Shown: one piece after another, positions 3,825 through 37,770 of the stretch
Layout: every line of letters starts with the position of its first letter
Numbering within the stretch: position 1 is the first letter of the stretch
From: Candidatus Heimdallarchaeota archaeon LC_2
GTDB taxonomy: Archaea; Asgardarchaeota; Heimdallarchaeia; Heimdallarchaeales; Kariarchaeaceae
Length of the DNA stretch: 45,857 nt
Direction: 5' to 3'
Assembly (NCBI GenBank): GCA_001940725.1
Contig: MDVR01000026.1
Coordinates: forward strand, 34,472 to 80,328
Position numbers and translations under genes: made by a program
Notes under the pieces: model-generated
Seen by the model: the letters and a program-made list of their open reading frames with translations, nothing else
Told to the model about the DNA's origin: nothing
The model's database searches: none

Positions 3825-4220
3825 TTAAGTATTGATTTTATTTATGTTTTTTATTGGCTTATAATATCGTTTAATCAAAAGACTACGTAGACTCCAAATA
3901 AAAGAAAAAGCTAATCCCGAAATAATAAGATCTGAATATTTCTTGATCCCGATAATTATCAGAAACACCAAGAAAATACTAATGCTGACTCCAAACCATT
4001 TCAGCTCTTTCTGCAAGTCTTCCGACTCTAAACTGCCCACACCGAATCGTTTGATACTCATCCGTACAATAGCCCATGTAATCGTGTAAGCTAAAATTAA
4101 AATCAGAATTTCATTAAAATTGGGGCTTCCAATTACACGTAAAGATAGTAGGAATAAAATTAAAATTCCCCCAAAGTATAAAATTTCCTTAAATGAATCA
4201 ATTTGATTCGACTGAACCAT
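3825..4220 (-). CDS. small four-TM membrane protein, unknown
   Basis: About 131 residues with four hydrophobic segments arranged as two similar halves. Each half is a pair of helices followed by a basic stretch: AIVRMSIKRFG in the first, LRSLLIKRYYK in the second. The halves are joined by a polar loop (GSLESEDLQKELKW). The repeat suggests an internally duplicated two-helix unit. I do not recognise the family. The ATG at 4220 is preferred over a TTG at 4241. The 234-base gap between this gene and the surface protein gene shows no gene. Confidence 0.55.
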   Translation of the reverse strand: MVQSNQIDSFKEILYFGGILILFLLSLRVIGSPNFNEILILILAYTITWAIVRMSIKRFGVGSLESEDLQKELKWFGVSISIFLVFLIIIGIKKYSDLIISGLAFSFIWSLRSLLIKRYYKPIKNINKINT

Positions 4221-4289
4221 ATTATAATAAAGAACTTTCAACTATTAATATTTTTCATGATCATTTGTATAAATACATTTTTTAAATTC

Positions 4290-4688
4290 AAAAAAATGAT
4301 TACTTCACGTTCTGCAACCCTATATCTTATGTCGCTATCACTTTCCCTTTTATGTTTTTACACAATAAAGGTTCGATTGAAATAGGTTCTGTTCAATAAT
4401 GAACGGTGCTTCCTTCTGCTTCTCATCCTGCTGGGATCATCAAAGTCAGTTTTCCCGTGATCTTTAACTACTGGCAGATCATTTTAAGTCCTTGAACTGA
4501 GTACCAGCATTCCTGTTATTTTGTTTTACCAAAAACAGGGTAGGACAACCTTTTGGTTTTCTGTACGCTTCTCACTATTCCGTTCTTCTTCTTTTCAGAA
4601 GAAGCTACAGGTAGACACTTACCTAGTCCTCTTACACCTTATTTACAAAGGTAGTAAGTTGTATGTCTGCAATCTTCCGATTGTAACT
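4290..4688 (-). ncRNA. candidate structured RNA gene, unidentified
   Basis: No convincing protein lies in 4221-4832, and the sequence is less AT-rich than nearby spacers. On the minus strand it holds a chain of hairpins: CAATC/GATTG closed by a GGAA loop (4670-4683); CTTAC-U-ACCTT paired to AAGGT-GTAAG, 10 bp with one bulge (4631-4658); CTTCTTCT/AGAAGAAG closed by a GAAA loop (4585-4604); AACC/GGTT (4547-4558); CCTGTT/AACAGG (4512-4539); and GTTCA/TGAAC with a UUAU loop (4391-4404). Two of the loops are GNRA tetraloops only on this strand. A TATA box lies about 26 bases before the first hairpin, and a T7 tract at 4296-4290 could terminate the transcript. I looked for RNase P, SRP and tmRNA hallmarks and could not place any of them. 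The 3' end is uncertain. Confidence 0.45.
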
Positions 4689-4709
4689 CCTACTGTTATA
4701 TGATTTGAC

Positions 4710-4717
4710 TATTTATA
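4710..4717 (-). promoter_or_regulatory. TATA box for the candidate RNA
   Basis: The minus strand reads TATAAATA, a canonical archaeal TATA element. Its centre is about 26 bases upstream of the first GNRA hairpin of the candidate RNA, which would put the transcription start near 4688. No protein start codon follows at a suitable distance. Confidence 0.45.
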
Positions 4718-4832
4718 GTACTGAAGCTAAATTTCAATAATTTGCTTAATGTAAATATATACAAATATTTTTCATGCAATTACATACTCTCTATCCAAAA
4801 TATTGAAAATTCACCAATTCAATTAGAGATAA

Positions 4833-5927
4833 ATGAATGATCTTGAGCACCAACTCAAAGATATGAGTGTTGAGGGTAAATTATACAGAAAAGTTCCGAA
4901 TAAACCCGATAGAATTCAGTGCTATGCTTGTGCTCACTATTGTTCAATTAAAGAAGGTAAGCGTGGTATCTGCAGGGTCAGATACAATGAAAACGGAAAA
5001 TTAATGGTTCCTAATGGATACGTGGCAGCCTTACAAGGTGATCCCATTGAGAAGAAGCCCTTCTACCATTTTTTGCCGAATACACTGGCCCTATCATTCG
5101 GTATGTTTGGTTGTGACCTGCATTGTGGCTACTGTCAGAACTGGGACATTTCTCAAGCCCTGAGAGATCCTGATGCAGTAAGAAACGTTCGTATTTTATC
5201 TCCGACCGATATTGTTAATTATGCAATAAAAACAGATTCACGATCAGTGGTTTCAACCTATAACGAGCCTTTGATTACTTCAGAATGGGCAGTAGAGGTA
5301 TTTAAAGAAGCGAGAAAAAATAATCTTTCAACAGGTTTTGTTTCAAACGGAAACTCAACTCCCGAAGTCTTGGATTTCATCCGCCCGTATACTGATGCCT
5401 ATAAGATTGATTTAAAATCATTTAATCAAAAGAATTACGGAAAGTTAGGTGCCAACTTAGAAAAAATATTGAAATCTATTGAAAACGTATACAATAAAGG
5501 CTTCTGGCTTGAAATAGTGACCTTGTTGATTCCAGGATTTAACAACTCTGCAGATGAAATTCAGCAGATGGCAGAGTTTATTGCTGGGGTTTCAGTTGAT
5601 ATACCGTGGCACATTACTGCATTCCATAAAGATTATAACATGAGAGACCCTGAAAATACCAAACCTGAACAATTAATAGAAGCTGCAGAAATTGGTGTCA
5701 AAGCTGGAATAAACTTTATTTATCCCGGAAATGTCCATGGTAGAGTTGGTGATTGGGAAAATACAAATTGTCCGAATTGCAAGACTATATTGGTAGAAAG
5801 AATAGGGTTCCGAGTTATTTCATATAATCTTTCAGATGATGGAAGATGTCCTTCTTGTGATGAAGTGATTCCTGGCAAATGGGAAACCCCAAAAGAAAGG
5901 AAGAGCTTGTTTAAATTTTTAACATAG
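4833..5927 (+). CDS. amrS: AmmeMemoRadiSam system radical SAM enzyme
   Basis: A radical SAM enzyme related to pyruvate-formate-lyase activating enzymes. C94, C98 and C101 form the CxxxCxxC motif that binds the SAM [4Fe-4S] cluster. The N-terminal C30, C33, C37 and C47 and the C-terminal pairs C313/C316 and C339/C342 look like additional metal or zinc-ribbon sites. STYNEPLIT and YKIDLKSF are typical of the barrel. The length (364) is normal for the AmrS/COG1180 group. In the AmmeMemoRadiSam grouping it partners a Memo-like protein (AmrB) and an AMMECR1-like protein (AmrA). AmrB lies next door in convergent orientation and AmrA is not in the window. The substrate is unknown. Confidence 0.88.
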   Translation: MNDLEHQLKDMSVEGKLYRKVPNKPDRIQCYACAHYCSIKEGKRGICRVRYNENGKLMVPNGYVAALQGDPIEKKPFYHFLPNTLALSFGMFGCDLHCGYCQNWDISQALRDPDAVRNVRILSPTDIVNYAIKTDSRSVVSTYNEPLITSEWAVEVFKEARKNNLSTGFVSNGNSTPEVLDFIRPYTDAYKIDLKSFNQKNYGKLGANLEKILKSIENVYNKGFWLEIVTLLIPGFNNSADEIQQMAEFIAGVSVDIPWHITAFHKDYNMRDPENTKPEQLIEAAEIGVKAGINFIYPGNVHGRVGDWENTNCPNCKTILVERIGFRVISYNLSDDGRCPSCDEVIPGKWETPKERKSLFKFLT

Positions 5928-5971: not shown

Positions 5972-6865
5972 CTAATCAGCGATACTAATTGTTAAACTTG
6001 CATAACCAACAGTGTAATTCCCACCAGGTAGAATATCTGCACTGTTCGCATATTTAACCAGATCAATTTCAGGTGTTCCCATTAAATTAGCCAAAGACAT
6101 AATGGTAAAAACGGGTCCGTAACCACACATTGTCATATTCAGAAATCTCCTTAACGAATTAGAATTATCCGGATCTCCTTCTATGAATGTTTCAATCATT
6201 TTTTGATCATTATAATGTAATTTCTCTTGATCATATTCATGTGACATATCGCTAGATGCAATTATTTTGATATTTTTATTCTTAAAATGTTTAATGATAT
6301 TATGTATCAAATCAGCTAGTTTTCTCGCAACAGGTAATGATTGATCAGCCATACAAATTGTAATTATCTTGAATTTGTTTTGGTATAGGTATTGGAGAAT
6401 TGGAAATTGAATATCAATTGAATGCTCAGATATATGTGCAGATTCTTCAATTTGAAAATTATCCTTCATATCACCAAAATTCCATTCTTTAATAAAATTT
6501 AGAATTTCATTATCTATCTCAATATCTCCAAGTGGGAATCCCCACTCTCCTTCTGGATAAATTGAAACAGGTGGACCCGTACCTCTGTGATTTGGCCCTA
6601 TAACAATGATAGTATCTATTTCAGGACTATTTTCAAAAAGTAATTTGAAACCACAAGCTGCTATTCTGCCACTGTACATTAATCCTGCATGTGGTGATAT
6701 CAATCCAAGTAGTCTGTCCCCATCAATTAGACCCAAATCTGGTTTTTCCAATGGATCTTTTCCTGGTCCGAATTCGTCATCCAAAAATAAGAATCTAATT
6801 TGATTTTCAAGACTATCCTTTGATCCTTCATACCAGCTTCCAGCAATAGGTGAAATTCTATACAT
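5972..6865 (-). CDS. amrB: AmmeMemoRadiSam system protein B (Memo-like)
   Basis: A MEMO1-family protein of 297 residues, near the usual length. Typical blocks are SPIAGSWYEG at the start, LISPHAGLMYSGRIAACGF, IVIGPNHRG and SEHSIDIQFPILQ. H59, H93 and C247 occupy the places of the human MEMO1 metal ligands (H49, H81, C244), so metal binding is plausible. The fold is related to extradiol dioxygenase class III enzymes, but the reaction in archaea is unknown. It is convergent with amrS, with only 44 bases between them; pairing of the two genes is the main support for a joint function. Confidence 0.88.
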   Translation of the reverse strand: MYRISPIAGSWYEGSKDSLENQIRFLFLDDEFGPGKDPLEKPDLGLIDGDRLLGLISPHAGLMYSGRIAACGFKLLFENSPEIDTIIVIGPNHRGTGPPVSIYPEGEWGFPLGDIEIDNEILNFIKEWNFGDMKDNFQIEESAHISEHSIDIQFPILQYLYQNKFKIITICMADQSLPVARKLADLIHNIIKHFKNKNIKIIASSDMSHEYDQEKLHYNDQKMIETFIEGDPDNSNSLRRFLNMTMCGYGPVFTIMSLANLMGTPEIDLVKYANSADILPGGNYTVGYASLTISIAD

Positions 6866-13646: not shown

Positions 13647-14257
13647 GAATATTTGCAGTTTATGTAATTAATGAAAATGGCTTATGCCTCTATCATCAAT
13701 CATTTACTGCCGATGCACCCCCGTATTCACTCATAACTGGATTATTAACTGCAATGCAAAATTTTGTCCTTGAGGTAACAGGAAGCTATCCTACTGACTT
13801 ATCTGCGGGTGGTTTCACATTTCACATGGAAAAATATGGTCCGTTAACAATAGTTCTTACTACATCTAATCAAAAAACTCCTATTCCAACTCTGGGCGAT
13901 TTAGGAATCCGTTTTCTAAGTCGATTTGGTGAAAAGGTAGAAAAGTGGAAAGGGAAGGTTTCTGATTTTCAGTCATTTGATTCTGACATTAAAGATATTT
14001 TAGGGGAGAGTCAAATCCAACCCCGTCTTGATCCAAAGTCACCATTGACTGCTTTAGTTCTTTTATCAATCCATCCAGATCTCCAAGATGTCGCACAAGC
14101 GATTATTCGTATTACTGAAGCATCTTCTCATGAAATATCAAAACTTACAGGACAAAATGAATATATAATTAGGCTGCAATGTGAAGAATTGGTAAAATTG
14201 GGTCATGTTGGAAGAATACATAGTGATGTTGATGAATTTATATATTTCACAAGGTAA
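13643..14257 (+). CDS. longin-like domain protein with C-terminal winged helix
   Basis: 204 residues. The N-terminal 125 residues have the pattern of the longin/SRX fold: strands RIFAVYVINENGLCLYHQSF, a long helix SLITGLLTAMQNFVLEVTG, strands FTFHMEKYGPLTIVLTT, then helices IRFLSRFGEKVEKWKGK and FDSDIKDILG. Residues 130-204 read as a winged helix (DVAQAIIRITEASSHEISKL, IRLQCEELVKLGHVGRI). Longin domains serve in eukaryotic SNAREs, Sec22, SRP-receptor alpha and GTPase exchange factors, and related ones are enriched in Asgard archaea. The TTG start overlaps the MinD-like stop (TTGA), so translation is probably coupled. The combination suggests an adaptor between the ATPase and DNA or a membrane protein. 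The longin call is by pattern, not by search. Confidence 0.65.
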   Translation: MRIFAVYVINENGLCLYHQSFTADAPPYSLITGLLTAMQNFVLEVTGSYPTDLSAGGFTFHMEKYGPLTIVLTTSNQKTPIPTLGDLGIRFLSRFGEKVEKWKGKVSDFQSFDSDIKDILGESQIQPRLDPKSPLTALVLLSIHPDLQDVAQAIIRITEASSHEISKLTGQNEYIIRLQCEELVKLGHVGRIHSDVDEFIYFTR

Positions 14258-14297
14258 TCATCACTAGTATTGAAAATAATTAATTTAGAGTAAACTG

Positions 14298-14927
14298 GTG
14301 ATAATCATAAGTAATTTCATACTTGATTTTTTTTCAACAATTGGAATATTAGTCTTAGCTGAATTCGCAGACAAGACCAATTTGGTAGCCTTATCCTTGA
14401 TGATTAAGACTCAAAAACCATTCTCCGTTGCATTTGGTGGGATGATTGGGATTGCCATTGTGACATTATTTGGAGTAATAGTAGGTGTTCTTATTGGTGA
14501 TTCGTTGCCTTTAAGATTTGTTCCCATTGTTGCAGGGTCTGTATTTATTTGGATTGGATTAAGTGAACTACTTGAGAACAATGATGAATCAGAAAAAGAA
14601 TCAGAAAGTGAATTAAAATCAAAAGAAATGCAAGTCACAAGAAAATCTGATATAATTATAAATAGCTTCATTTTGATTGGGTTGGCGGAATTTGGAGATA
14701 AAAGCCAAATTTTTGTTATTACAAGAGCCATAGAGGGGGACCCTCTTGCTATATTATTAGGTGCAATCATTGGAATGGGGATTGTAATGTTTGCCACAGC
14801 ATATTTTGGTGAAATTCTAATAGAAAAATTACCCGAAGAACAAATTCATAAATATGCACATTATGGATTTGTTATTGCAGGTTTTCTCATTTTAGGGTCA
14901 GGGATTTACAATTTTATTTTAACGTGA
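14298..14927 (+). CDS. TMEM165/GDT1 family cation transporter
   Basis: 209 residues with about six to seven membrane helices in two repeats. Each repeat carries the family E-x-[GA]-D-K-[TS] motif: AEFADKTN at residues 21-28 and AEFGDKSQ at 130-137. An acidic, Ser/Lys-rich loop joins the halves. Relatives (UPF0016; GDT1, TMEM165, MneA) transport Mn2+ or Ca2+ against protons. The first motif has Ala instead of Gly. It starts with GTG, 40 bases after the longin gene on the same strand, but no functional link is obvious. Confidence 0.88.
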   Translation: MIIISNFILDFFSTIGILVLAEFADKTNLVALSLMIKTQKPFSVAFGGMIGIAIVTLFGVIVGVLIGDSLPLRFVPIVAGSVFIWIGLSELLENNDESEKESESELKSKEMQVTRKSDIIINSFILIGLAEFGDKSQIFVITRAIEGDPLAILLGAIIGMGIVMFATAYFGEILIEKLPEEQIHKYAHYGFVIAGFLILGSGIYNFILT

Positions 14928-16627: not shown

Positions 16628-17752
16628 TTATTCTATTGGAAATATAAAACCACTTCTTACCTTCTCAATTAAGGGTGGAAGTGCATCTTGGTAGCTGGCT
16701 ACAATCCCATAGTCCGCATGATCGAATATTATAGCTTTGGGATCTTTGTTTATTGCAATAATAATTCTTGAATCTTTCATACCCGCAATATGTTGAATTG
16801 CACCTGAAATTCCAATTGCAATGTATACTTGAGGTCGAACTGTTTTCCCAGTTTGTCCAACTTGATGTTTATAATCTACATAACCCGCATCAACTGCAGC
16901 ACGAGATGCACCCATTTCTACTGATTGGCCATTTCCCCGAATTGCTTCCACCAGCTCTGTTAACATTGGAAAGCCTTCTTTTCCAACACCAAATCCTCCT
17001 GAAACAATTATATCTGCTTTAGTTAAATCAATAGATTCTTTACTTCTTCGTGTTTCTAATACCTCTACACTAAAATCACCTTCCTCCCAATTAGGGTTAA
17101 ATTCAATGATTTCACCTTTTCTAGAAGTATCGGGTGTTATTGCACGAAATACACCTGGTCTCGCCGTTGCCATGGCAGGATAATTCCATGGACCGATTAT
17201 TGTTGCCAATTTGCTTTCTCCAAATGATGGTCTGATCATCTTAAAGACTTTTTCAAATCTTTGATTTTTACGTTTATTTGCATAGTACCCGATATCAAGT
17301 TCAGTACAATCTGCTGATAATCCAACATTTAAAGTAGCTGCAATCCGTGGTGCTAAATCTCGCCCAATTGTAGAAGCAGCAATTATGCCTATTTCAGGCT
17401 TAATTTCCATTATCGCTTCAATCATTGCTCGAGCATAAGGTAAAGTTTGATAATGCTCTAATCTCTCATCATCAATTACATAGACAGTATCTGCACCATA
17501 ATGAATTAAGGTTTCAGCATGTTTTTTTGACCCGTGACCAATTACAATAGTAGTAATTTTTCTAGAGTCTTCATCCATTTTTTTACTTACACGAGTTGCT
17601 TCCCCAATTATCTCTATTGCAGCATTAGAAAGATCAATACCATCCATTTGAGCCCAAGTTACAATTCCTCTTGCACCATCCCTAAGATCAACATATGGGA
17701 TGTCTTTGTCTCTTTCCATTCTCTTTTTGAGTTTTTCTTCTTCTTCGGTCAC
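16628..17752 (-). CDS. fixB: electron transfer flavoprotein alpha subunit
   Basis: 374 residues with the ETF-alpha layout: an N-terminal nucleotide-binding-like domain and a C-terminal FAD-binding domain. The C-terminal part holds ADIIVSGGFGVGKEGF, MGASRAAVDAGYVD and the ETF-alpha signature around RPQVYIAIGISGAIQHIAG. It should bind the alpha FAD and pass electrons from ETF-beta to the FixC dehydrogenase. A charged N-terminal extension (EEEEKLKKRMERD) precedes the core. The GTG start immediately follows the TAA of the beta subunit gene, which implies translational coupling. With fixX and fixC close by, this belongs to a FixABCX-type complex. Confidence 0.9.
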   Translation of the reverse strand: MTEEEEKLKKRMERDKDIPYVDLRDGARGIVTWAQMDGIDLSNAAIEIIGEATRVSKKMDEDSRKITTIVIGHGSKKHAETLIHYGADTVYVIDDERLEHYQTLPYARAMIEAIMEIKPEIGIIAASTIGRDLAPRIAATLNVGLSADCTELDIGYYANKRKNQRFEKVFKMIRPSFGESKLATIIGPWNYPAMATARPGVFRAITPDTSRKGEIIEFNPNWEEGDFSVEVLETRRSKESIDLTKADIIVSGGFGVGKEGFPMLTELVEAIRGNGQSVEMGASRAAVDAGYVDYKHQVGQTGKTVRPQVYIAIGISGAIQHIAGMKDSRIIIAINKDPKAIIFDHADYGIVASYQDALPPLIEKVRSGFIFPIE

Positions 17753-18628
17753 TTAACCATTCTCCAAAATTTGTTCTTTATTCGATATCAGATCAGAGGT
17801 AAGTTTCTCAATTCTTTCTTCCATACTTCCTGTATTATAATAAATTGTTTCTGAATGTTCTACCTGTACATTTTTTACCCTTGACACGACAGTTGGAGAT
17901 CCTGGTAAACCTGCGTGCTCATCTGGCAATCCAATACTTGCAATATCAAACAAAATAATATCCTTTTCCAGGGCAGACATTGAAGAGTTTAGTGAAGGAC
18001 CTCTTGGGACATTTGCTGTATGCGTTATAGAAAGCATCATTGGATAAGGGACTTTTAATCTTTGAAATCCCCCTTCAATTATTCTGCGAATTTCCAAATA
18101 TTCACCTTTTAATGGTATAACATCCTCTACATATGTGACTTGATTTATTCCCAATCTACCTGCAACTTGTGGTCCAACGTGTGCTGTATCCCCATCAATT
18201 GTTTGAAGTCCTGCAAAAATGATATCCAATTTTCTACCATTATCAATTTTTTCTTCAATATGATTAATTAATTTTGCAAGTGCTTCTGCAGTTGCCCATG
18301 TATCGGATCCAGCCAATTTTCTGTCAGATAACAAATATGCACGATCAGCTCCTTTTCTTATCGCTTCATTCAATGATTGTTGTGCATTAGGTGGACCCAT
18401 AGAGACCATTGTTATAGTTCCACCAACTTTATCTTTCAAAGAAAGAGCTTCTTCCAAAGCATTTGTACAATGCGGGTTCATTTGTGATTTCCCTGATCTA
18501 TCCATTAATCCCTCAGCAGTCGTTTTCATTGCTTTTGGAATAGGTACTTGCTTGATCATAACATAAATATTTAAATCTGTTTTAGATTGATTATGCAAGT
18601 TAATAACCTCGGAAACGGTCTTTGTCAT
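17753..18628 (-). CDS. fixA: electron transfer flavoprotein beta subunit
   Basis: 291 residues of the ETF-beta/FixA family: IYVMIKQVPIPKA, MNPHCTNALEEALSLKD, ITMVSMGPPNAQQSLNEAIR and GADRAYLLSDRKLAGSDTWATA. QTIDGDTAHVGPQVAGRLG is also typical. In FixABCX the beta subunit carries the bifurcating flavin and takes electrons from NADH. A charged 15-residue extension precedes the usual start, but the ATG at 18628 sits about 28 bases after a strong TATA element, which indicates a nearly leaderless message from this ATG. It is followed directly by fixB. Confidence 0.9.
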   Translation of the reverse strand: MTKTVSEVINLHNQSKTDLNIYVMIKQVPIPKAMKTTAEGLMDRSGKSQMNPHCTNALEEALSLKDKVGGTITMVSMGPPNAQQSLNEAIRKGADRAYLLSDRKLAGSDTWATAEALAKLINHIEEKIDNGRKLDIIFAGLQTIDGDTAHVGPQVAGRLGINQVTYVEDVIPLKGEYLEIRRIIEGGFQRLKVPYPMMLSITHTANVPRGPSLNSSMSALEKDIILFDIASIGLPDEHAGLPGSPTVVSRVKNVQVEHSETIYYNTGSMEERIEKLTSDLISNKEQILENG

Positions 18629-19807: not shown

Positions 19808-20101
19808 TCATCCCGAAATATACTTTACACCGTATGAGCCTCTTGGATTATCCCATGAAACTGCATCCTGGTCACACATAATATCGCATGTCCCACATTC
19901 AACGCAATCCTCGTATTGAAATCTCATTTCACCGTCATAAAAAATAAAACAACGTGTCGGACATCCTGCAATACATAGATGATGGGGACAAGAGAAACAT
20001 TTTGTTGTATCAACAACGATGTGTGCACGATCATGAGAATCTGTTACCCAAGTTGTGATTCCCAATTTGTTTTTTATATCAAAATTTTCCAATCGTTTCA
20101 T
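19808..20101 (-). CDS. fixX: FixX-like ferredoxin
   Basis: 97 residues, the normal size for FixX. It has a cysteine-rich first half (C35, C38, C43, C47, C51) and a second [4Fe-4S] type set (C66, C69, C72, C76 in CVECGTCDIMC). The ending WDNPRGSYGVKYISG is the standard FixX/ETF-QO ferredoxin tail. In the complex it carries electrons from FixC or the bifurcating flavin. It overlaps fixC by four bases (the ATG of fixX lies in the fixC stop region), so the two are cotranscribed. Confidence 0.92.
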   Translation of the reverse strand: MKRLENFDIKNKLGITTWVTDSHDRAHIVVDTTKCFSCPHHLCIAGCPTRCFIFYDGEMRFQYEDCVECGTCDIMCDQDAVSWDNPRGSYGVKYISG

Positions 20102-21399
20102 AAGTGGCGTGCTCCTAATCCATCCTTAATTAAAGTAAATATTCCAGCTCCTGAAGATCTAAATGATTTCAACATGTACCGTATTAAATGTTCTTTTGGT
20201 TCTCCATTTTCAGTTAAATAATTTCTAAATCCATCATTTATCGCATTTGGGTACGTTTTGAATAATCTTTTGTTCTTAGTCATTTTCTTTACATTCTTGA
20301 ATTTCTCAAAATCCTTGAGAATATACGATTTTTTCAATTTTTTATGATAAAGAGAAAGTGTGCTAGATGAGAAATTTGACTTAGTAATAGCTTCTTTGGC
20401 AGTTTCCGCTGCAAGTATTCCACTTTTAATTCCGTAATTCATTCCTTGAATCACTAAGCCATTGCTAAATACAAAACCAGCAGCATCCCCGATAACCATG
20501 TATCCATCTCCATAAAAATCAGGCATCTTTTTGATACCAAATTCTGGGACCATTTTAGCACCATATTCTATAGAAATTCCATCTTTCAATAGTCTTTTTA
20601 TGTAAGGGTGCTTCTTAAATTGTTCAATTACTTCATACGATCTATCTTCAGAAGATAAACTATCAAGGTGAACAATTACCCCAATGCTTAGCGATTCTTT
20701 ATTTGTATAGAAGAAACCTCCAGCCAAAACCTCGGAATCATTCATATTTCCCAGAATGAATTCACCAGCTACCCCAGCATTATCTTCTAATAGAAATCTT
20801 TCTTCAAGTACAGATTTATCAAGTTGTATTACTTCTTTTAGACCAATCATCATATCGGGATAATCATATCGTGTTTCTTCTTTTCGATAGGTTAAATTAT
20901 GTTTCAATAATAAACGCGGGTTTACACCTTCTGCAATTATTGTTATGGGTGCTCTTAATTCCTCGTTTCCCTGTTTTACACCAACAACTTTTCCATCTTC
21001 AAAAACTAATTCATCAACTGTGATTCCAGATAAAACTGCCACTCCTGCTTCCTGAGCTTGTTTTGCAAGCCAATCATCAAATGATGCTCGTAGTATTGAT
21101 ACTCCTGGATATGGTTTTTCTTTCCAACTGTCAAAATGAAAATCAAAAACAGTAGCATCTCTTTCAGACAGAAAACCTACTTTTTTATTGATAATAAATC
21201 TTTCAATTGGTGCATCATCCATCCAGTTAGGAAGAATTTCTGCTAAATCGTTTCCCCAAAGTACCCCACCAGATAGATTTTTAGATCCTATCGGAAGTCC
21301 GCGGTCAATAAGTACAACTTTCAAACCTTCTTGAGCCATTTTAATTGAGGCAGAAGTACCAGATACTCCAGCTCCTATAATAATTACATCAGGTTTCAT
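20098..21399 (-). CDS. fixC: FixC-like FAD dehydrogenase (ETF-quinone oxidoreductase type)
   Basis: 434 residues from the ATG at 21399. The dinucleotide motif GAGVSG lies at residues 9-14, with GSKNLSGGVLWG a few tens of residues later. VIGDAAGFVFSNGLVIQGMNYG near residue 300 is the FAD-contacting segment. Together these match FixC and the flavin part of ETF-ubiquinone oxidoreductase, which accept electrons from ETF and reduce a quinone. The frame is open to an ATG at 21477, but the family starts just before the FAD motif and AT-rich TATA-like elements lie between the two starts. It forms a coupled pair with fixX. Confidence 0.88.
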   Translation of the reverse strand: MKPDVIIIGAGVSGTSASIKMAQEGLKVVLIDRGLPIGSKNLSGGVLWGNDLAEILPNWMDDAPIERFIINKKVGFLSERDATVFDFHFDSWKEKPYPGVSILRASFDDWLAKQAQEAGVAVLSGITVDELVFEDGKVVGVKQGNEELRAPITIIAEGVNPRLLLKHNLTYRKEETRYDYPDMMIGLKEVIQLDKSVLEERFLLEDNAGVAGEFILGNMNDSEVLAGGFFYTNKESLSIGVIVHLDSLSSEDRSYEVIEQFKKHPYIKRLLKDGISIEYGAKMVPEFGIKKMPDFYGDGYMVIGDAAGFVFSNGLVIQGMNYGIKSGILAAETAKEAITKSNFSSSTLSLYHKKLKKSYILKDFEKFKNVKKMTKNKRLFKTYPNAINDGFRNYLTENGEPKEHLIRYMLKSFRSSGAGIFTLIKDGLGARHL

Positions 21400-21549
21400 G
21401 GGATTGATTCCTAAAATTATATGATATTCATTCAAATACCTAATATATTGATTATGGTCTTTATACTGTTTATTCATAATAAATACTTAAGGATAAATGA
21501 GTTCCATCAAAATAAGTCAAATTGTTTCTTACTGAGTAAGATTAATCAA

Positions 21550-25860: not shown

Positions 25861-26820
25861 ATGTCTCTATTGACTGAACAATTCCTTAAAGTCGAAAATG
25901 TAACCAAAACTTTTGGTAATTTTGTCGCATTAGATGGATTTAGTTGTGAGATACCTACTGGGGTAACAGGATTACTTGGACCAAATGGAGCAGGTAAGAC
26001 TACTTTTATTCGAGCCTTGCTTGGCATTCATCGTTTTCAATCAGGCCGAATTACTTTCATGAATTACGAATTACCTCATGATTTACTTACTGTTAAAGAT
26101 ATGATCGGGTATCAACCTGAAGTGAAGACAGTGATTAATCGGGTCACCGCGATGAAATATGTTGTACATATGTGTAGACTGGCAGGACTCCCTCATGAGG
26201 CTGCTAAACAACGAGCTTTTGATACATTACATTATGTGGGACTTGAAGAGGCGCGATACCGTCCCTTAGAGACTTATTCACAAGGAATGTTGCAGAAAGT
26301 TAAACTTGCAACCGCTCTAGTGCATGATCCACTTTTGCTAGTCCTAGATGAGCCTACAGCAGGTTGTGATCCAGATTCCCGGGAGCAGATTCTAAATTTA
26401 ATTTATGATCTCGGGCAAAATTATGGCAAAAATTTGCTTATTTCAACTCATCTTCTTCCAGATATTGAACGGGCTGCAGATTATGTCGTTCTCTTATCTC
26501 TTGGAAAGCTGGTTATGCAAGGAACCCTCACAGATGTACTTGCAAGAAATAAAACTTCTTCCAAACTAGAAATCAGAGTTTCTGGGAGTCCACAAAAATT
26601 TGCCGATCTTCTTGAAAAAGCAGGCTTTAACATTATTAGTGTAGCCACTGACATTCAGTGTATTCCTACCAATGACATTGGCATGAACAATTTTCTACCA
26701 ATTTTTAAATTGGCGAAAGAAAATAAAATGGACATTAGGAAAATTACTCCTTACAAGATACATCTTGAAGAAGTGTTCTTAGATGCAGTCCAAGAAAATG
26801 GAGGCAAATACGGAGGTTAA
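25861..26820 (+). CDS. ABC transporter ATP-binding subunit 1
   Basis: 319 residues. Walker A GPNGAGKTT at residues 40-48, signature YSQGMLQKV near 139-147 (SQGM in place of SGGE), Walker B LLLVLDEPT with D163/E164, and H-loop STHLLPDIE. The C-terminal 80 residues form an alpha/beta regulatory extension. It is the first gene of a four-gene operon with permease 1 six bases downstream; the GGAGG overlapping its end serves as ribosome binding site for that gene. The system belongs to the ABC-2 export class with unknown cargo. Confidence 0.92.
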   Translation: MSLLTEQFLKVENVTKTFGNFVALDGFSCEIPTGVTGLLGPNGAGKTTFIRALLGIHRFQSGRITFMNYELPHDLLTVKDMIGYQPEVKTVINRVTAMKYVVHMCRLAGLPHEAAKQRAFDTLHYVGLEEARYRPLETYSQGMLQKVKLATALVHDPLLLVLDEPTAGCDPDSREQILNLIYDLGQNYGKNLLISTHLLPDIERAADYVVLLSLGKLVMQGTLTDVLARNKTSSKLEIRVSGSPQKFADLLEKAGFNIISVATDIQCIPTNDIGMNNFLPIFKLAKENKMDIRKITPYKIHLEEVFLDAVQENGGKYGG

Positions 26821-30635: not shown

Positions 30636-31931
30636 CTACATATGTCGGACAACAGCTTGCCCAAATTCACTGCATTTGATTGGTGTGACATTATCCATCT
30701 GCCGCGCTAAATCATAGGTTACTTCTTTATTATTTATTGCACCTTGAATTCCCTTATGAATTAGAGCCGCAGCTTCACCCCAACCCATATAATCAAGCAT
30801 TATTGCTGCTGAAAGTAAAACTGAACCAGGATTAACTTTATCCATGCCTGTATATTTTGGAGCAGTGCCATGAGTTGCTTCTGCAACGATTACTCCAGTT
30901 TTATAATTAATATTTGCACCTGGTGCCATTCCAAGTCCTCCTACTAGTGCGGCAGCAGCATCGGAAATATAATCACCGTTAAGGTTCATAGTAGCCAAAA
31001 CTGAAAATTCAGATGATCGCAATAATATATGTTGGAAGATGATATCAGCAATTCGATCATTTACGAGTATTTTTCCTTCTGGTATTTTACCTTCATATTT
31101 ATCCCATAATTCATCTTCAGTAACAATATATTGACGAAATTCCTGAACTGCAACTTCATATCCCCAATTTTTGAAGGCACCTTCCGTATATTTCATGATA
31201 TTACCTTTGTGTACAAGAGTAACTGTTGGCAGATTTTTCTCGATAGCATATTTTATTGCTGCACGGACTAATCTCTTTGAACCGGTTTCTGAAATCGGTT
31301 TAATTCCAATCCCTGAATCTTCTCGGACTGTCTTACCAAGTTCTCGTAATAATTTTAGCAACTTCTTTTGTCCTTCTTCACCTTTTTTGAATTCAATACC
31401 CGAATAAACATCTTCACTATTTTCTCTGAATATTACTAGATCTACTTCTTCAGGATGTTTAACTCGACTTGGTACACCATCAAAATATTTGACTGGTCTT
31501 ACACAGGCATAAAGATCCAGCATTTGACGTATCCCAACATTAAGTGATCTAAAACCTTCACCTATAGGAGTAGTTAGGGGTCCTTTCAAAGAAATCAGAT
31601 ACTCACCAATTGCATCAATTGTGTCTTTAGGCAAATAAGCATGTCTTTGCTCGTCTATAGGTAATTTGACTAATTCTTCATCGGTTAATTCTGGATGATA
31701 AAATTCTCTAGCTTCATCCCCTGCGTAGATTTTAAACCAGGAGATTTTTTTAGTGCCACCGTATGCTTTTTGGACTGCAGCATCCACAGTTGGAATTGTT
31801 GCTTTTAGGATATCTGGACCAATCCCATCCCCTGCTATATAAGGCACAATGGGATTATTTGGAACATTTAATTTCCCGTTATCAATAGTCACTTTACTTC
31901 CCTCAGTGGGGGGACTAATTTTTTCAAACAT
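30636..31931 (-). CDS. icd: NADP-dependent isocitrate dehydrogenase
   Basis: 431 residues, the length of bacterial-type homodimeric IDH. Isocitrate-binding residues are present as S129, N131, R135 and R145 (E. coli S113, N115, R119, R129). K359, Y360, V366, Y406 and R410 correspond to the E. coli NADP determinants K344, Y345, V351, Y391 and R395, so it should use NADP. It makes 2-oxoglutarate, CO2 and NADPH in the TCA cycle or in glutamate synthesis. The start [15 protein letters not shown] is family-like. A perfect AT palindrome lies 13-31 bases upstream of the ATG. Confidence 0.95.
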
Positions 31932-34172: not shown

Positions 34173-34934
34173 ATGAGCGAAGTTATTGCCACAAAAGACT
34201 ATGACAATAAAGTATTAATTCTTCAAATGACTGGAAAAACCAATAGTTTCACTAAATCATTTCTCACAACACTTGAGCTGTGGCTTGATCATGCTGTCTT
34301 AGATAAGCAGTTTCATTCTGTAATAATTACTGGATCTGGAAATATTTTTTCTGTTGGAGGGGATTTAAACCAAATGAAAGAAGAAGTTGATAAAGGAGAC
34401 CCAGAGGGTTATGTGCGAAAAATTGTACCAATTATAAATAGGATTATAAAGAAGATCATCGAACATCCAATCCCTATAATTGCCGCTATTAATGGGAGCG
34501 CCGCTGGAGGGGGTTTATCTTTAGCATTATCATGTGATAGAGTAATTGCTGTTCCAGAAGCAAAGTTTGCTTTCGCCTTTGGTGCTTTAAACCTGACCCC
34601 TGATTCAGGTTCAACTATATTCTTTAATAGACGATTTGGTTATTCAAGATCATTATTTAATATTTTAACTGCTAAAGTAATATCTGCAAAGGAAGCGTAC
34701 AACTTAAACGCGATTGATGAACTTTCTGATCCCTCAAATCTAATAAATGACGCAATAAAATATTCAATCAGTTTGAAATTAATTAATCGAGATGTAATCG
34801 GTCAAACTAAAAGATTGTTAAATTCAGGTATTATTTCAATTATAGATCAACAATTGAGAGAAGAGTATGATTCAATAAGAAAAGCTAGTGGATCAACAGA
34901 TTTTTCTGATCAACTTAATAAATTAATTTATTAG
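34173..34934 (+). CDS. crotonase family enzyme, isomerase type
   Basis: 253 residues of the enoyl-CoA hydratase/isomerase fold, with the oxyanion-hole segments GNIFSVGGDLNQM and GSAAGGGLSLALSCD. The two catalytic glutamates of enoyl-CoA hydratase are absent: aligned positions are S116 and F136. Instead an Asp (D144) is present in LTPDSGST, as in PaaG-type isomerases and related enzymes, so double-bond isomerisation of an acyl-CoA is a better guess than hydration. A perfect GGAGGT six bases before the ATG fixes the start. The last 21 codons are duplicated downstream as part of a 373-bp repeat. Confidence 0.82.
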   Translation: MSEVIATKDYDNKVLILQMTGKTNSFTKSFLTTLELWLDHAVLDKQFHSVIITGSGNIFSVGGDLNQMKEEVDKGDPEGYVRKIVPIINRIIKKIIEHPIPIIAAINGSAAGGGLSLALSCDRVIAVPEAKFAFAFGALNLTPDSGSTIFFNRRFGYSRSLFNILTAKVISAKEAYNLNAIDELSDPSNLINDAIKYSISLKLINRDVIGQTKRLLNSGIISIIDQQLREEYDSIRKASGSTDFSDQLNKLIY

Positions 34935-35012
34935 AAAGGATCTTTAATAATTATAGATCTTACACTGTTAATAATAGATCTTTAACACTAATCATCATAT
35001 TAAATTGGTAGA

Positions 35013-35022
35013 TTATATAAAT
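35013..35022 (+). promoter_or_regulatory. TATA box, first copy
   Basis: TTATATAAAT centred about 34 bases before the ATG at 35052, which would give a short leader of about ten bases. It belongs to the first unit of the duplication and drives the truncated frame. Confidence 0.5.
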
Positions 35023-35051
35023 CTAAATGTTCCACGAGAAAATAAGTTAAC

Positions 35052-35261
35052 ATGTCAGAAGAGATTGAGGATTCTGGATCATACTATACAGATGATGCTC
35101 AACCTAAGAAAGGTGGAAGTATCAAGAAGGGTATAGGAGTAGGTGTTATTGTAACACTTGTATTCGAACTTTTTGTAAGTTTCGCACTTGAAGCTGATAC
35201 AAACCTAGTACATAGATATATTGCATATATGTTGGGAATTGGATTCAATAAGAAAAGCTAG
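35052..35261 (+). pseudogene. truncated duplicate of the 781-residue membrane protein
   Basis: 69 codons. The first 63 are identical in DNA and protein to the start of the gene at 35425 (MSEEIEDSGSYY...YMLGIG), including the first two hydrophobic segments. Reading then runs into the copied crotonase tail in another frame and stops after FNKKS. The product would be a two-helix fragment with the acidic head. It has its own copy of the promoter, so it may be expressed. It is best seen as a by-product of the tandem duplication. Confidence 0.75.
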
Positions 35262-35385
35262 TGGATCAACAGATTTTTCTGATCAACTTAATAAATTAAT
35301 TTATTAGAAAGGATCTTTAATAATTATAGATCTTACACTGTTAATAATAGATCTTTAACACTAATCATCATATTAAATTGGTAGA

Positions 35386-35395
35386 TTATATAAAT
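35386..35395 (+). promoter_or_regulatory. TATA box, second copy
   Basis: The same TTATATAAAT element, 373 bases further on, is the promoter of the full-length gene at 35425. Both copies should recruit the basal factors equally. Confidence 0.5.
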
Positions 35396-35424
35396 CTAAA
35401 TGTTCCACGAGAAAATAAGTTAAC

Positions 35425-37770
35425 ATGTCAGAAGAGATTGAGGATTCTGGATCATACTATACAGATGATGCTCAACCTAAGAAAGGTGGAAGTATCAAGA
35501 AGGGTATAGGAGTAGGTGTTATTGTAACACTTGTATTCGAACTTTTTGTAAGTTTCGCACTTGAAGCTGATACAAACCTAGTACATAGATATATTGCATA
35601 TATGTTGGGAATTGGTGCTCTATTCGTTGCAGCATTGTATGCTAAGTCAACATGGAAGATGTTTTTCTTCGGAACACCTGTTATTGTCGGCACAAGTTTT
35701 GTCTTACCTTTAGCAAGCCCAGATAATTTTTCTGGGTTAATGTCTCCATTTCTTAATTTACTACCAGCTATTAATGCAATGGTGGATTCGTTAAAAGCCA
35801 CAGGAGAAGATCTTTCAAAATATGACACATATATTGACTATCTCAATAATCCTTTATACGGAATTTTATTCGATTTTGTTTTGGCAATTTTAATAGGAAC
35901 TATTGCAGCCTTAGGTTTAGTTGGTTTTGTTAAAATCTTCAGCAACAAACCAGGTATTTTTACCGTAATATCCTTTATTTTCTCATTATTTTTCTTTATC
36001 CTAGGTGTAATTGTACTTCCCTATCTTTTAGTTGTCTCAACTGGTGTGGCTCAATTTGGTCTTGCTTTAGGTGCAGGAGGAGTCAATCTACAGGCAGGTT
36101 TCGAAATAATTACTGAAGATGGTGACATAACCGAGGCCGAGGCTTTCTTTGATGAGGCAGAAAGATGGTTCGATGAAGCAGATTCACTACTAAAAGGACT
36201 AGAAGACATGCAAGTCTTCGCTTTATTAGGATCGACCGATCAATTTCCGAACTATGAAATTCTTATGGATAATTTCATAATTATGATAGATTCCGCAGTC
36301 GATATGGCAAAGACTGTTGGGCCAATGTTCCTTGGAATAAGCGCGCTTCAAGATGGAATGGAAAAATCAATGAGTGTATTGACAAGTGCTTTAGGAAATA
36401 CCAATTTACAAATCTCGGAGTTATCACCTGGAGATGAAGCTACATTCGAAGAAGGGATTGATGATATTCAATTAGGTTTTGTAAACATAAAAGACGCAAT
36501 TCCTGATATTCAAAGTGCTTTGACTCGATTTGAAGAAGTATCCAGAGCTGAAACTTTGGGAGCTGCTGATTCAGAAGGTGTAGATGTTGAAGAACAATTC
36601 AATCTAATTGAAGGCACACTGAAACTACTAAATTCTTCATTAGGTGTTTTGAGCGTTTTGATTTCTCCATCAGATTTTAATTCTACAGCTGGGATTACAG
36701 TAGAAGAACCTTTGGTCCATTTACTTAGAGGTGCAATTTCTCTTTCAGATGCTTCGTCTGCAGTTGGAGACACTTCAAGTTTTGAAGGCACTTCTGGAAT
36801 ATTTGATGATATCATTTCCCATTTGGAAATAGTAGTTTATGCACTTGCAGATCCTGTGTTTGATGATTTTGTAAATACGAACGTGAATGACGTTACTGTA
36901 TTGTTAGAAATCAAAACACAACTCTCTGGAATGTTCGATTTTATACAAGATGCAGGTAGTATAAGTATCGCCATGGGTGAATTCGGGAACATTGCAGGAG
37001 GTACAGTACTTTCGATGAACCAGACGATATCAACGGTTTTCGCAACTGGAGATTTTCTTACAGTAGATGAAGATACATACGATAGTGCTAAACTTAATTT
37101 CACAAAAAGTGATGGAATTTTAAACGGATCAGAGCAAATGAAAAACGAAGGAGCAAATGTTGACACTTTGGTTGGTCTGATGGAAGCCAGGTCACTTGCT
37201 GATGAATATGGACTGATGAGTGCTGGAGCTTCTGATTTTGTTAATGTGTTTGAAGAATTTGACATGGGTCTTAACGGACAGAACTTCTTCCATCTATCTC
37301 ATGCGTTCTTCAACATTATCCTTACGGCTGAACAGCTTAAAGTTGTAGATGGATTAGTGAGCAATATCAAAACGGATTTTGAATTTATATTTGCACTAGA
37401 TTATGCAACTAATGCCAGTGCTATTGATCCTGCAGTTAATAACATTGAGGGTAATTCAACTGATATCGTCGATTCTTTGGATACTATTGACGAAAAGCTT
37501 ACATATACTGCTGGTAATTTTAGCGCGATAGGTAATACTATGTCGCAAATGGCCGAAACTGCAACTGCAATAGATGGACCTACTGGAATAATATTTAATG
37601 TTGGTCAAATTAGAACTGCAATAGAGATCATCGAATTTGAAGCAAGTGAAACAATTACAGTAGGAAATTTCCCAAGTAAACTAATAACCATCGACGGTCA
37701 GCTTACTATTATTCAAGCTCAATTAGTACTGATCAATGTGAATTTAGGTAATGTACAAATTGCGGGATAA
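35425..37770 (+). CDS. large membrane protein with acidic helical exterior domain
   Basis: 781 residues. An acidic head (SEEIEDSGSYYTDDAQ) and KKGGSIKKG lead to about five membrane helices within residues 30-215 (such as GVGVIVTLVFELFVSFALEA and TVISFIFSLFFFILGVIVL). The remaining 560 residues are soluble, rich in Asp/Glu/Ser and almost free of Lys, Cys and His. They look helical and carry repeated motifs of the type D-I-x-S-x-L-x-x-F-E, so coiled bundles are probable; the C-terminus is ITIDGQLTIIQAQLVLINV. Topology suggests the domain lies outside. I do not recognise the family. A hairpin with a T tract follows the gene. Confidence 0.72.
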   Translation: MSEEIEDSGSYYTDDAQPKKGGSIKKGIGVGVIVTLVFELFVSFALEADTNLVHRYIAYMLGIGALFVAALYAKSTWKMFFFGTPVIVGTSFVLPLASPDNFSGLMSPFLNLLPAINAMVDSLKATGEDLSKYDTYIDYLNNPLYGILFDFVLAILIGTIAALGLVGFVKIFSNKPGIFTVISFIFSLFFFILGVIVLPYLLVVSTGVAQFGLALGAGGVNLQAGFEIITEDGDITEAEAFFDEAERWFDEADSLLKGLEDMQVFALLGSTDQFPNYEILMDNFIIMIDSAVDMAKTVGPMFLGISALQDGMEKSMSVLTSALGNTNLQISELSPGDEATFEEGIDDIQLGFVNIKDAIPDIQSALTRFEEVSRAETLGAADSEGVDVEEQFNLIEGTLKLLNSSLGVLSVLISPSDFNSTAGITVEEPLVHLLRGAISLSDASSAVGDTSSFEGTSGIFDDIISHLEIVVYALADPVFDDFVNTNVNDVTVLLEIKTQLSGMFDFIQDAGSISIAMGEFGNIAGGTVLSMNQTISTVFATGDFLTVDEDTYDSAKLNFTKSDGILNGSEQMKNEGANVDTLVGLMEARSLADEYGLMSAGASDFVNVFEEFDMGLNGQNFFHLSHAFFNIILTAEQLKVVDGLVSNIKTDFEFIFALDYATNASAIDPAVNNIEGNSTDIVDSLDTIDEKLTYTAGNFSAIGNTMSQMAETATAIDGPTGIIFNVGQIRTAIEIIEFEASETITVGNFPSKLITIDGQLTIIQAQLVLINVNLGNVQIAG

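What the first reader, a model, noticed from the sequence alone, without database searches (positions are those of the whole stretch)
4290..4717. Candidate structured RNA gene with its own TATA box, family unidentified
The minus strand of a gene-free stretch carries at least six local hairpins. Two of them are closed by GNRA loops (GGAA on CAATC/GATTG; GAAA on an 8-bp stem), and a 10-bp stem with one bulge lies between them. A consensus TATA box sits about 26 bases before the first hairpin, and a T7 tract lies at the far end. GNRA loops appear only on the minus strand, so strand choice is supported. I could not match it to RNase P, SRP or tmRNA hallmarks, so it could be a diverged known RNA or a new one.
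Basis: partly seen in the sequence, partly recalled or inferred. Interest (0 to 1): 0.75.

Follow-up and report, generated by a model that had tools for sequence, protein, structure and literature searches.

The report
Possible unidentified RNA gene, Asgard archaeon
A 400-base gene-free stretch in an Asgard archaeon looks like a stand-alone structured RNA gene that matches no RNA family searched, but without related sequences or RNA data it remains a moderately supported candidate.

Summary
The described features are there: on the minus strand, a TATA box (4717-4710), a row of local hairpins (two with GNRA loops, one 10-bp stem with a bulge) and a T7 tract (4296-4290). The block (about 4690-4300) is the window's only long stretch that is both gene-free and raised in GC (0.386 against 0.14 and 0.22 in its flanks). 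It has no ORF over 60 codons, no coding signal over the block as a whole and no Pfam match. GNRA hairpins are in modest excess (2 against 0.15 expected). Overall folding is only in the window's best few per cent and does not favour a strand; strand choice rests on GNRA loops, TATA box and purine bias. Rfam finds nothing; RNase P, SRP and tmRNA tests fail. The host is a Kariarchaeaceae (Heimdallarchaeia) archaeon. No related Asgard DNA was obtained, so conservation and covariation, the decisive tests, stay open. Best reading: an independently transcribed structured non-coding RNA of about 400 nt, family unknown (about 0.5). Rivals: leader of gene 3825-4220, functionless GC-raised spacer, mobile-element remnant, diverged housekeeping RNA. 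Interest is moderate: a good target for one comparative search.

The parts
4710..4717 (-). TATA box TATAAATA, candidate promoter of the RNA (start inferred near 4693-4687)
   Evidence: sequence; the same 8-mer occurs 11 times in the window
4290..4693 (-). candidate RNA gene, about 400 nt
   Evidence: gene-free, GC 0.386 over 4300-4690, 60.6% purines on minus over 4300-4690; ends inferred
4670..4683 (-). hairpin CAATC-GGAA-GATTG, GNRA loop
   Evidence: pairing probability 0.53
4631..4658 (-). 10-bp hairpin with one bulged base, 7-nt loop
   Evidence: pairing probability 0.97-0.98
4585..4604 (-). 8-bp hairpin with GAAA loop
   Evidence: pairing probability 0.90; stems of 8 bp or more with a GNRA loop: P 0.004
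4547..4558 (-). 4-bp hairpin AACC-AAAA-GGTT
   Evidence: pairing probability 0.95
4512..4539 (-). hairpin CCTGTT...AACAGG with an inner stem
   Evidence: pairing probability 0.83-0.91
4469..4509 (-). 8-bp stem TGCTGGTA/TGCCAGTA with a long loop
   Evidence: pairing probability 0.75
4391..4404 (-). hairpin GTTCA-TTAT-TGAAC
   Evidence: pairing probability 0.96
4290..4296 (-). T7 tract, candidate terminator
   Evidence: sequence
4268..4275 (-). TATTTATA, candidate own TATA box of the downstream gene 3825-4220
   Evidence: sequence; function inferred
3825..4220 (-). downstream gene, small membrane-like protein (131 aa from ATG); flank, not part of the RNA
   Evidence: 2 of 1028 candidates match, the window's own 131-aa form and one 70% relative; no Pfam family
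4752..4759 (+). TAAATATA, candidate TATA box of the radical-SAM gene 4833-5927 (flank)
   Evidence: sequence read by eye; function inferred
4247..4259 (+). left copy of a 13-nt direct repeat bracketing the block
   Evidence: P 0.002 by flank shuffles, noticed after the fact
4764..4776 (+). right copy of the 13-nt direct repeat

Best explanation
An independent non-coding RNA gene of about 400 nt, read on the minus strand. Proposed mechanism: TBP/TFB bind the TATA box at 4717-4710, transcription starts near 4693-4687 and ends at the U7 tract 4296-4290. The transcript folds into a row of short, mostly local hairpins, some capped by GNRA loops of the kind that dock into receptors or bind proteins, and works in trans as a structured RNA, most likely the RNA part of a ribonucleoprotein or a regulatory RNA, rather than as a message. 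Shown: the sequence features, the absence of a coding signal over the block as a whole, the composition, and the absence of a match to a known family. Inferred: transcription, both ends, the fold and the function.
For: Only long gene-free stretch with raised GC: of 4547 390-nt stretches 30 lack a stop-free run over 75 aa; 20 of these 30 lie here at GC 0.328-0.387, the other 10 at 0.287-0.305. Core GC 0.386 against 0.138 and 0.218 in the flanks. No coding signal over the block, no Pfam match for ten pieces, no homologue of the longest ORF inside it. GNRA hairpins 2 against 0.15 expected, none on plus; purines 60.6% on minus. Fold z -2.80 on minus, 0 of 100 shuffles as good. Both neighbouring genes have promoter-like boxes of their own. 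Raised-GC gaps in an AT-rich genome were enriched in structured RNAs in Pelagibacter (PMC2704228, abstract and passages).
Against: No transcript and no related sequence seen. Fold z on plus is as good, 4 of 140 background stretches fold as well, and several other places in the window fold better. The TATA box lacks an obvious BRE (by eye), and both TATA and T7 are common here. GNRA excess depends on the stem cut-off. Without comparison a single-sequence fold does not show conserved structure (PMC11234323, passages).
Confidence: 0.5

Rival explanations
1. Structured 5' leader of gene 3825-4220 on the same strand. Transcription from the TATA box at 4717-4710 would run through the folded block and the U7 tract into the gene, so the block would act in cis, for example as an attenuator or riboswitch.
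For: Same strand; the U-tract lies between the folded block and the gene start at 4220, as in a leader with an attenuator.
Against: The gene has a TATA-like box of its own at 4275-4268; a leader of about 470 nt would be long; the gene is nearly an orphan (1 relative beside itself among 1028 candidates); no riboswitch family matches.
Confidence: 0.17
2. No function: a spacer or the remains of a decayed gene whose GC and purine bias are left over, with hairpins and box-like motifs by chance.
For: Fold only in the best few per cent; TATA and T runs are common; no relatives seen in the collections searched. One 120-nt sub-window of nine (4242-4361, minus) gave a slightly positive coding score, +0.073, and the coding model misses a real 64-aa gene elsewhere.
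Against: No Pfam match of ten pieces, no homologue of the longest ORF, coding score negative in six frames over the block; sharp GC step at both ends; GNRA excess.
Confidence: 0.22
3. Remnant of a small non-autonomous mobile element (MITE-like), with the 13-nt direct repeats as target duplication.
For: AATATTTTTCATG at 4247-4259 and 4764-4776 brackets the block, P 0.002 by shuffling the flanks.
Against: Noticed after the fact; the inverted match inside is at chance (P 0.32) and overlaps the two outward TATA regions; the ends do not line up with the repeats (by eye); no second copy in the window (best match 15 nt).
Confidence: 0.06
4. A strongly diverged known housekeeping RNA, above all RNase P RNA, or SRP RNA.
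For: Length of about 400 nt; ACAGA at 4392-4388 followed by ACCTATTTC, which can pair with GGACTAGGT at 4629-4621 with one mismatch, just after a hairpin, loosely like RNase P helix P4 (recalled).
Against: Such a pairing arises in 24.8% of 500 shuffles. The recalled CR-I and CR-V letters are missed by 2 and by 3-5 positions. RF00373 gives nothing here at E<=10, yet the same model rings in 11 of 14 control genomes, 7 of them bacteria. RF01857 (SRP) rings in 9 of 14 controls and gives nothing here. The controls ran through another search route than the Rfam scan of the window.
Confidence: 0.05

Closest known systems
Archaeal RNase P RNA (Rfam RF00373)
   Same: Similar length, stand-alone RNA gene; one chance-level P4-like pairing beside ACAGA
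   Different: No match at E<=10, CR-I/CR-V letters (recalled) not met
Archaeal SRP RNA (Rfam RF01857)
   Same: A GGAA tetraloop on a stem
   Different: No match at E<=10; helix 8 letters (recalled) missed by 3
Candidate structured RNAs found in raised-GC gaps of AT-rich genomes (PMC2704228, abstract and passages read)
   Same: Same signature: a long, GC-raised, gene-free gap in an AT-rich genome
   Different: There the candidates were followed up with metagenomic relatives; here none could be obtained

Membership tests
RNase P RNA | match to the family's covariance model | tested here: not met
   No RNase P model among hits at E<=10; model reach shown by 11 of 14 control genomes
RNase P RNA | conserved CR-I and CR-V letters forming P4 (recalled) | tested here: not met
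   Best CR-I 2 mismatches, CR-V 3 and 5 mismatches for two spellings; P4-like pairing in 24.8% of shuffles
SRP RNA | match to the family's covariance model | tested here: not met
   None at E<=10; RF01857 rings in 9 of 14 control genomes
tmRNA / tRNA | ARAGORN call | tested here: not met
   0 genes in the window
C/D box sRNA | C, D', C' and D boxes at usual spacing (recalled) | tested here: inconclusive
   Only the C box was scanned by script: TTGATGA at 4443-4437 minus, one mismatch; CTGA at 4449-4446 just before it; no complete set found by eye
Decayed transposase or other protein gene | recognisable protein family or coding signal | tested here: not met
   Ten pieces without Pfam match at E<=10; no homologue of the 60-aa ORF 4521-4703; best block score -0.185
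Conserved structured RNA | conservation and covariation in relatives | not testable with these tools
   No genome held; the 80 loci kept (of 431) are all from records titled as bacteria
Stand-alone RNA gene | defined transcript on the minus strand | not testable with these tools
   No RNA data available

The most novel reading that the evidence does not exclude
A new class of large (about 400 nt) structured RNA of the Kariarchaeaceae line of Heimdallarchaeia, transcribed from its own promoter and acting as an RNP scaffold or ribozyme in archaea close to the origin of eukaryotes.
Probability: 0.22. Interest if true: 0.65.

Novelty: new member of a known kind. Interest (0 to 1): 0.35.

Why it matters
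A lineage-specific large structured RNA in Heimdallarchaeia would be an entry point to RNA-protein biology near the origin of eukaryotes; the papers listed (20 of 50 shown, 20 of 135) include none whose title is about such an RNA. If the block is only a leader or a spacer, it is ordinary.

Tried and rejected
RNase P: a P4-like pairing beside ACAGA looked tempting, but its chance rate is 24.8% and the model match is absent. SRP: the GGAA hairpin resembles helix 8 only loosely (3 mismatches to a recalled motif). Searching 41 genomes, relatives of one of these, gave no close relative of the window's isocitrate dehydrogenase (34 of 41 match, best full-length identity 61%). Viral contigs (7 of 8 scans): two patterns of 22 and 27 nt gave 0; two neighbour proteins gave no relative; three patterns of 17-18 nt gave 16, 23 and 1 stretches, none with more than 20 nt of identity to the block. 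plasmids: none; phages: 8 records with matches of at most 44 query bases, E 0.04 or worse. blastn and nhmmer of the block against 84 and then 124 fetched loci: beyond the pattern matches themselves nothing better than E 3.7. Mobile element: see rivals. Papers on Asgard RNase P or non-coding RNA: nothing on this RNA in the listings and passages seen.

Full report
Host. The isocitrate dehydrogenase at 30636-31931 has its best named full-length matches in 'Candidatus Kariarchaeaceae archaeon' (83%) and 'Candidatus Heimdallarchaeota archaeon' (82%), a partial Kariarchaeaceae copy at 91%, and unnamed metagenome copies up to 98% (120 of 8000 scored are listed). The window is from a Heimdallarchaeia (Asgard) archaeon. 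No whole genome is held for it.

Observation. The gap between the divergent genes 3825-4220 (-) and 4833-5927 (+) is gene-free: seven ORFs of at least 25 aa overlap it, the longest 60 aa. The gene start at 4220 follows from the 131-aa form in the protein collection. Inside the gap, about 390 bases (4300-4690) have GC 0.386, between AT-rich flanks of 0.138 and 0.218; coding GC of the window is 0.338. Of 4547 overlapping 390-nt stretches, 30 have no stop-free run over 75 aa; 20 of the 30 lie in this gap (GC 0.328-0.387) and the other 10 are at 0.287-0.305. Of 12 gaps of at least 100 nt, four contain 100 nt at GC 0.40 or more; the other three hold a zinc-finger ORF at 1451-1645 (PF23477), a 4Fe-4S ORF at 19808-20101 and a duplicated gene piece at 34960-35242. 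Raised-GC gaps of a low-GC genome are the setting in which structured RNAs were enriched in Pelagibacter (PMC2704228, abstract and passages read).

Coding test. A tetranucleotide phase model trained on 44 ORFs of the window scores the first 390 nt of eight of them between -0.007 and 0.228 in frame (they are part of the training set); the block scores at best -0.185 over six frames. Of nine 120-nt sub-windows one (4242-4361, minus, at the AT-rich end) reached +0.073; the rest stayed at -0.074 or below. The model is blunt for short genes: the gap with the real 64-aa zinc-finger gene scored at best -0.218. Ten stop-to-stop pieces had no Pfam match at E<=10, and the 60-aa plus-strand ORF 4521-4703 has no homologue. 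A decayed transposase is therefore not supported.

Structure. The minus strand folds to -99.0 kcal/mol (z -2.80, 0 of 100 shuffles as good); the plus strand to -90.3 (z -2.14, 2 of 100). A repeat on 401 nt gave z -2.44 (minus) and -2.70 (plus); 4 of 140 background stretches of the window, scored with 16 shuffles each, were at or below either value. In 150-nt tiles the best tile of the block (4576-4725, minus, z -2.90) ranks ninth of 1220. The fold is unusual but not exceptional, and energy does not pick the strand. What favours minus: two GNRA-capped stems of at least 5 bp (0.15 expected, P 0.004; with cut-offs of 4 or 6 bp P is 0.068 and 0.056) and none on plus; 60.6% purines on minus; TATA box and T7 tract in the right places. 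The hairpins 4658-4631, 4604-4585, 4558-4547, 4539-4512 and 4404-4391 have pairing probabilities of 0.83 or more; the GGAA hairpin 4683-4670 has 0.53.

Identity. Rfam has no hit in the window at gathering scores, 6 weak hits at E<=5 over the window, none in this region, and 5 or 4 weak hits in the region at E<=10, none of them an archaeal housekeeping RNA. ARAGORN finds nothing. The reach of the models was checked in control genomes: RNaseP_arch rings in 11 of 14 (over its cut-off in 4) and Archaea_SRP in 9 of 14 (over its cut-off in 4), bacteria included. These controls ran through another search route than the Rfam scan, so they are a guide to sensitivity, not an exact match. A P4-like pairing of GGACTAGGT (4629-4621) with ACCTATTTC after ACAGA (4392-4388) occurs in 24.8% of shuffles and is dismissed.

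Flanks. Promoter-like boxes at 4275-4268 (minus) and 4752-4759 (plus) give both outward genes a possible start of their own, leaving the block and its TATA box (4717-4710) unexplained by either (function inferred). A 13-nt direct repeat brackets the block (P 0.002 by flank shuffles, found after the fact); the inverted match inside it is at chance (P 0.32) and overlaps the two outward TATA regions. A mobile element is possible but unlikely.

Limits. The decisive test, conservation with covariation, could not be run. Paper searches for Asgard or Heimdallarchaeia together with RNase P RNA, SRP RNA, structured or non-coding RNA, or small RNA listed no title about this RNA; 20 of 50 papers were shown and 20 of 135, and only passages of PMC6380272, PMC2996960, PMC7191817, PMC2704228 and PMC11234323 were read. 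As PMC11234323 stresses, a single folded sequence does not show conserved structure.

Verdict. I give about 0.5 to an independent structured RNA gene, 0.17 to a cis leader, 0.22 to no function, 0.06 to a mobile-element remnant and 0.05 to a diverged known RNA.

Noticed in passing
34960-35242 and 35333-35615: Exact 283-nt direct repeat at 373-nt spacing: the start of gene 35425-37770 is duplicated upstream of it, and by eye the tail of the first copy repeats the end of the enoyl-CoA hydratase gene 34173-34934; a recent tandem duplication or an assembly artefact.
   Followed up: partly
1727-1822: A 38-bp imperfect long hairpin overlapping the 3' end of the minus-strand gene 1769-2080; strongest fold outlier of the window (z -6.1, -4.05), stronger than the finding itself.
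   Followed up: partly
26626-26775 and 14251-14400, minus strand: Two more fold outliers stronger than the finding (z -4.03 and -3.39): antisense to an ABC-transporter-like gene, and across a junction between two plus-strand genes.
   Followed up: no
4833-5927 and 5972-6865: AmmeMemoRadiSam radical-SAM gene (TIGR04337) beside a Memo gene (PF01875); the 80 loci kept are all from records titled as bacteria at 53-59% identity, so the gene may come from bacteria; no archaeal comparison was made.
   Followed up: no
1451-1645: Short 64-aa treble-clef zinc-finger gene (PF23477) in a gap that looks empty at a 100-aa ORF cut-off.
   Followed up: yes
19808-20101, 20098-21477, 16628-18628: Cluster with a 4Fe-4S protein and an ETF-quinone-oxidoreductase-like FAD protein near electron-transfer-flavoprotein-like genes (alpha-like subunit; the second by its place and sequence, not searched).
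   Followed up: partly
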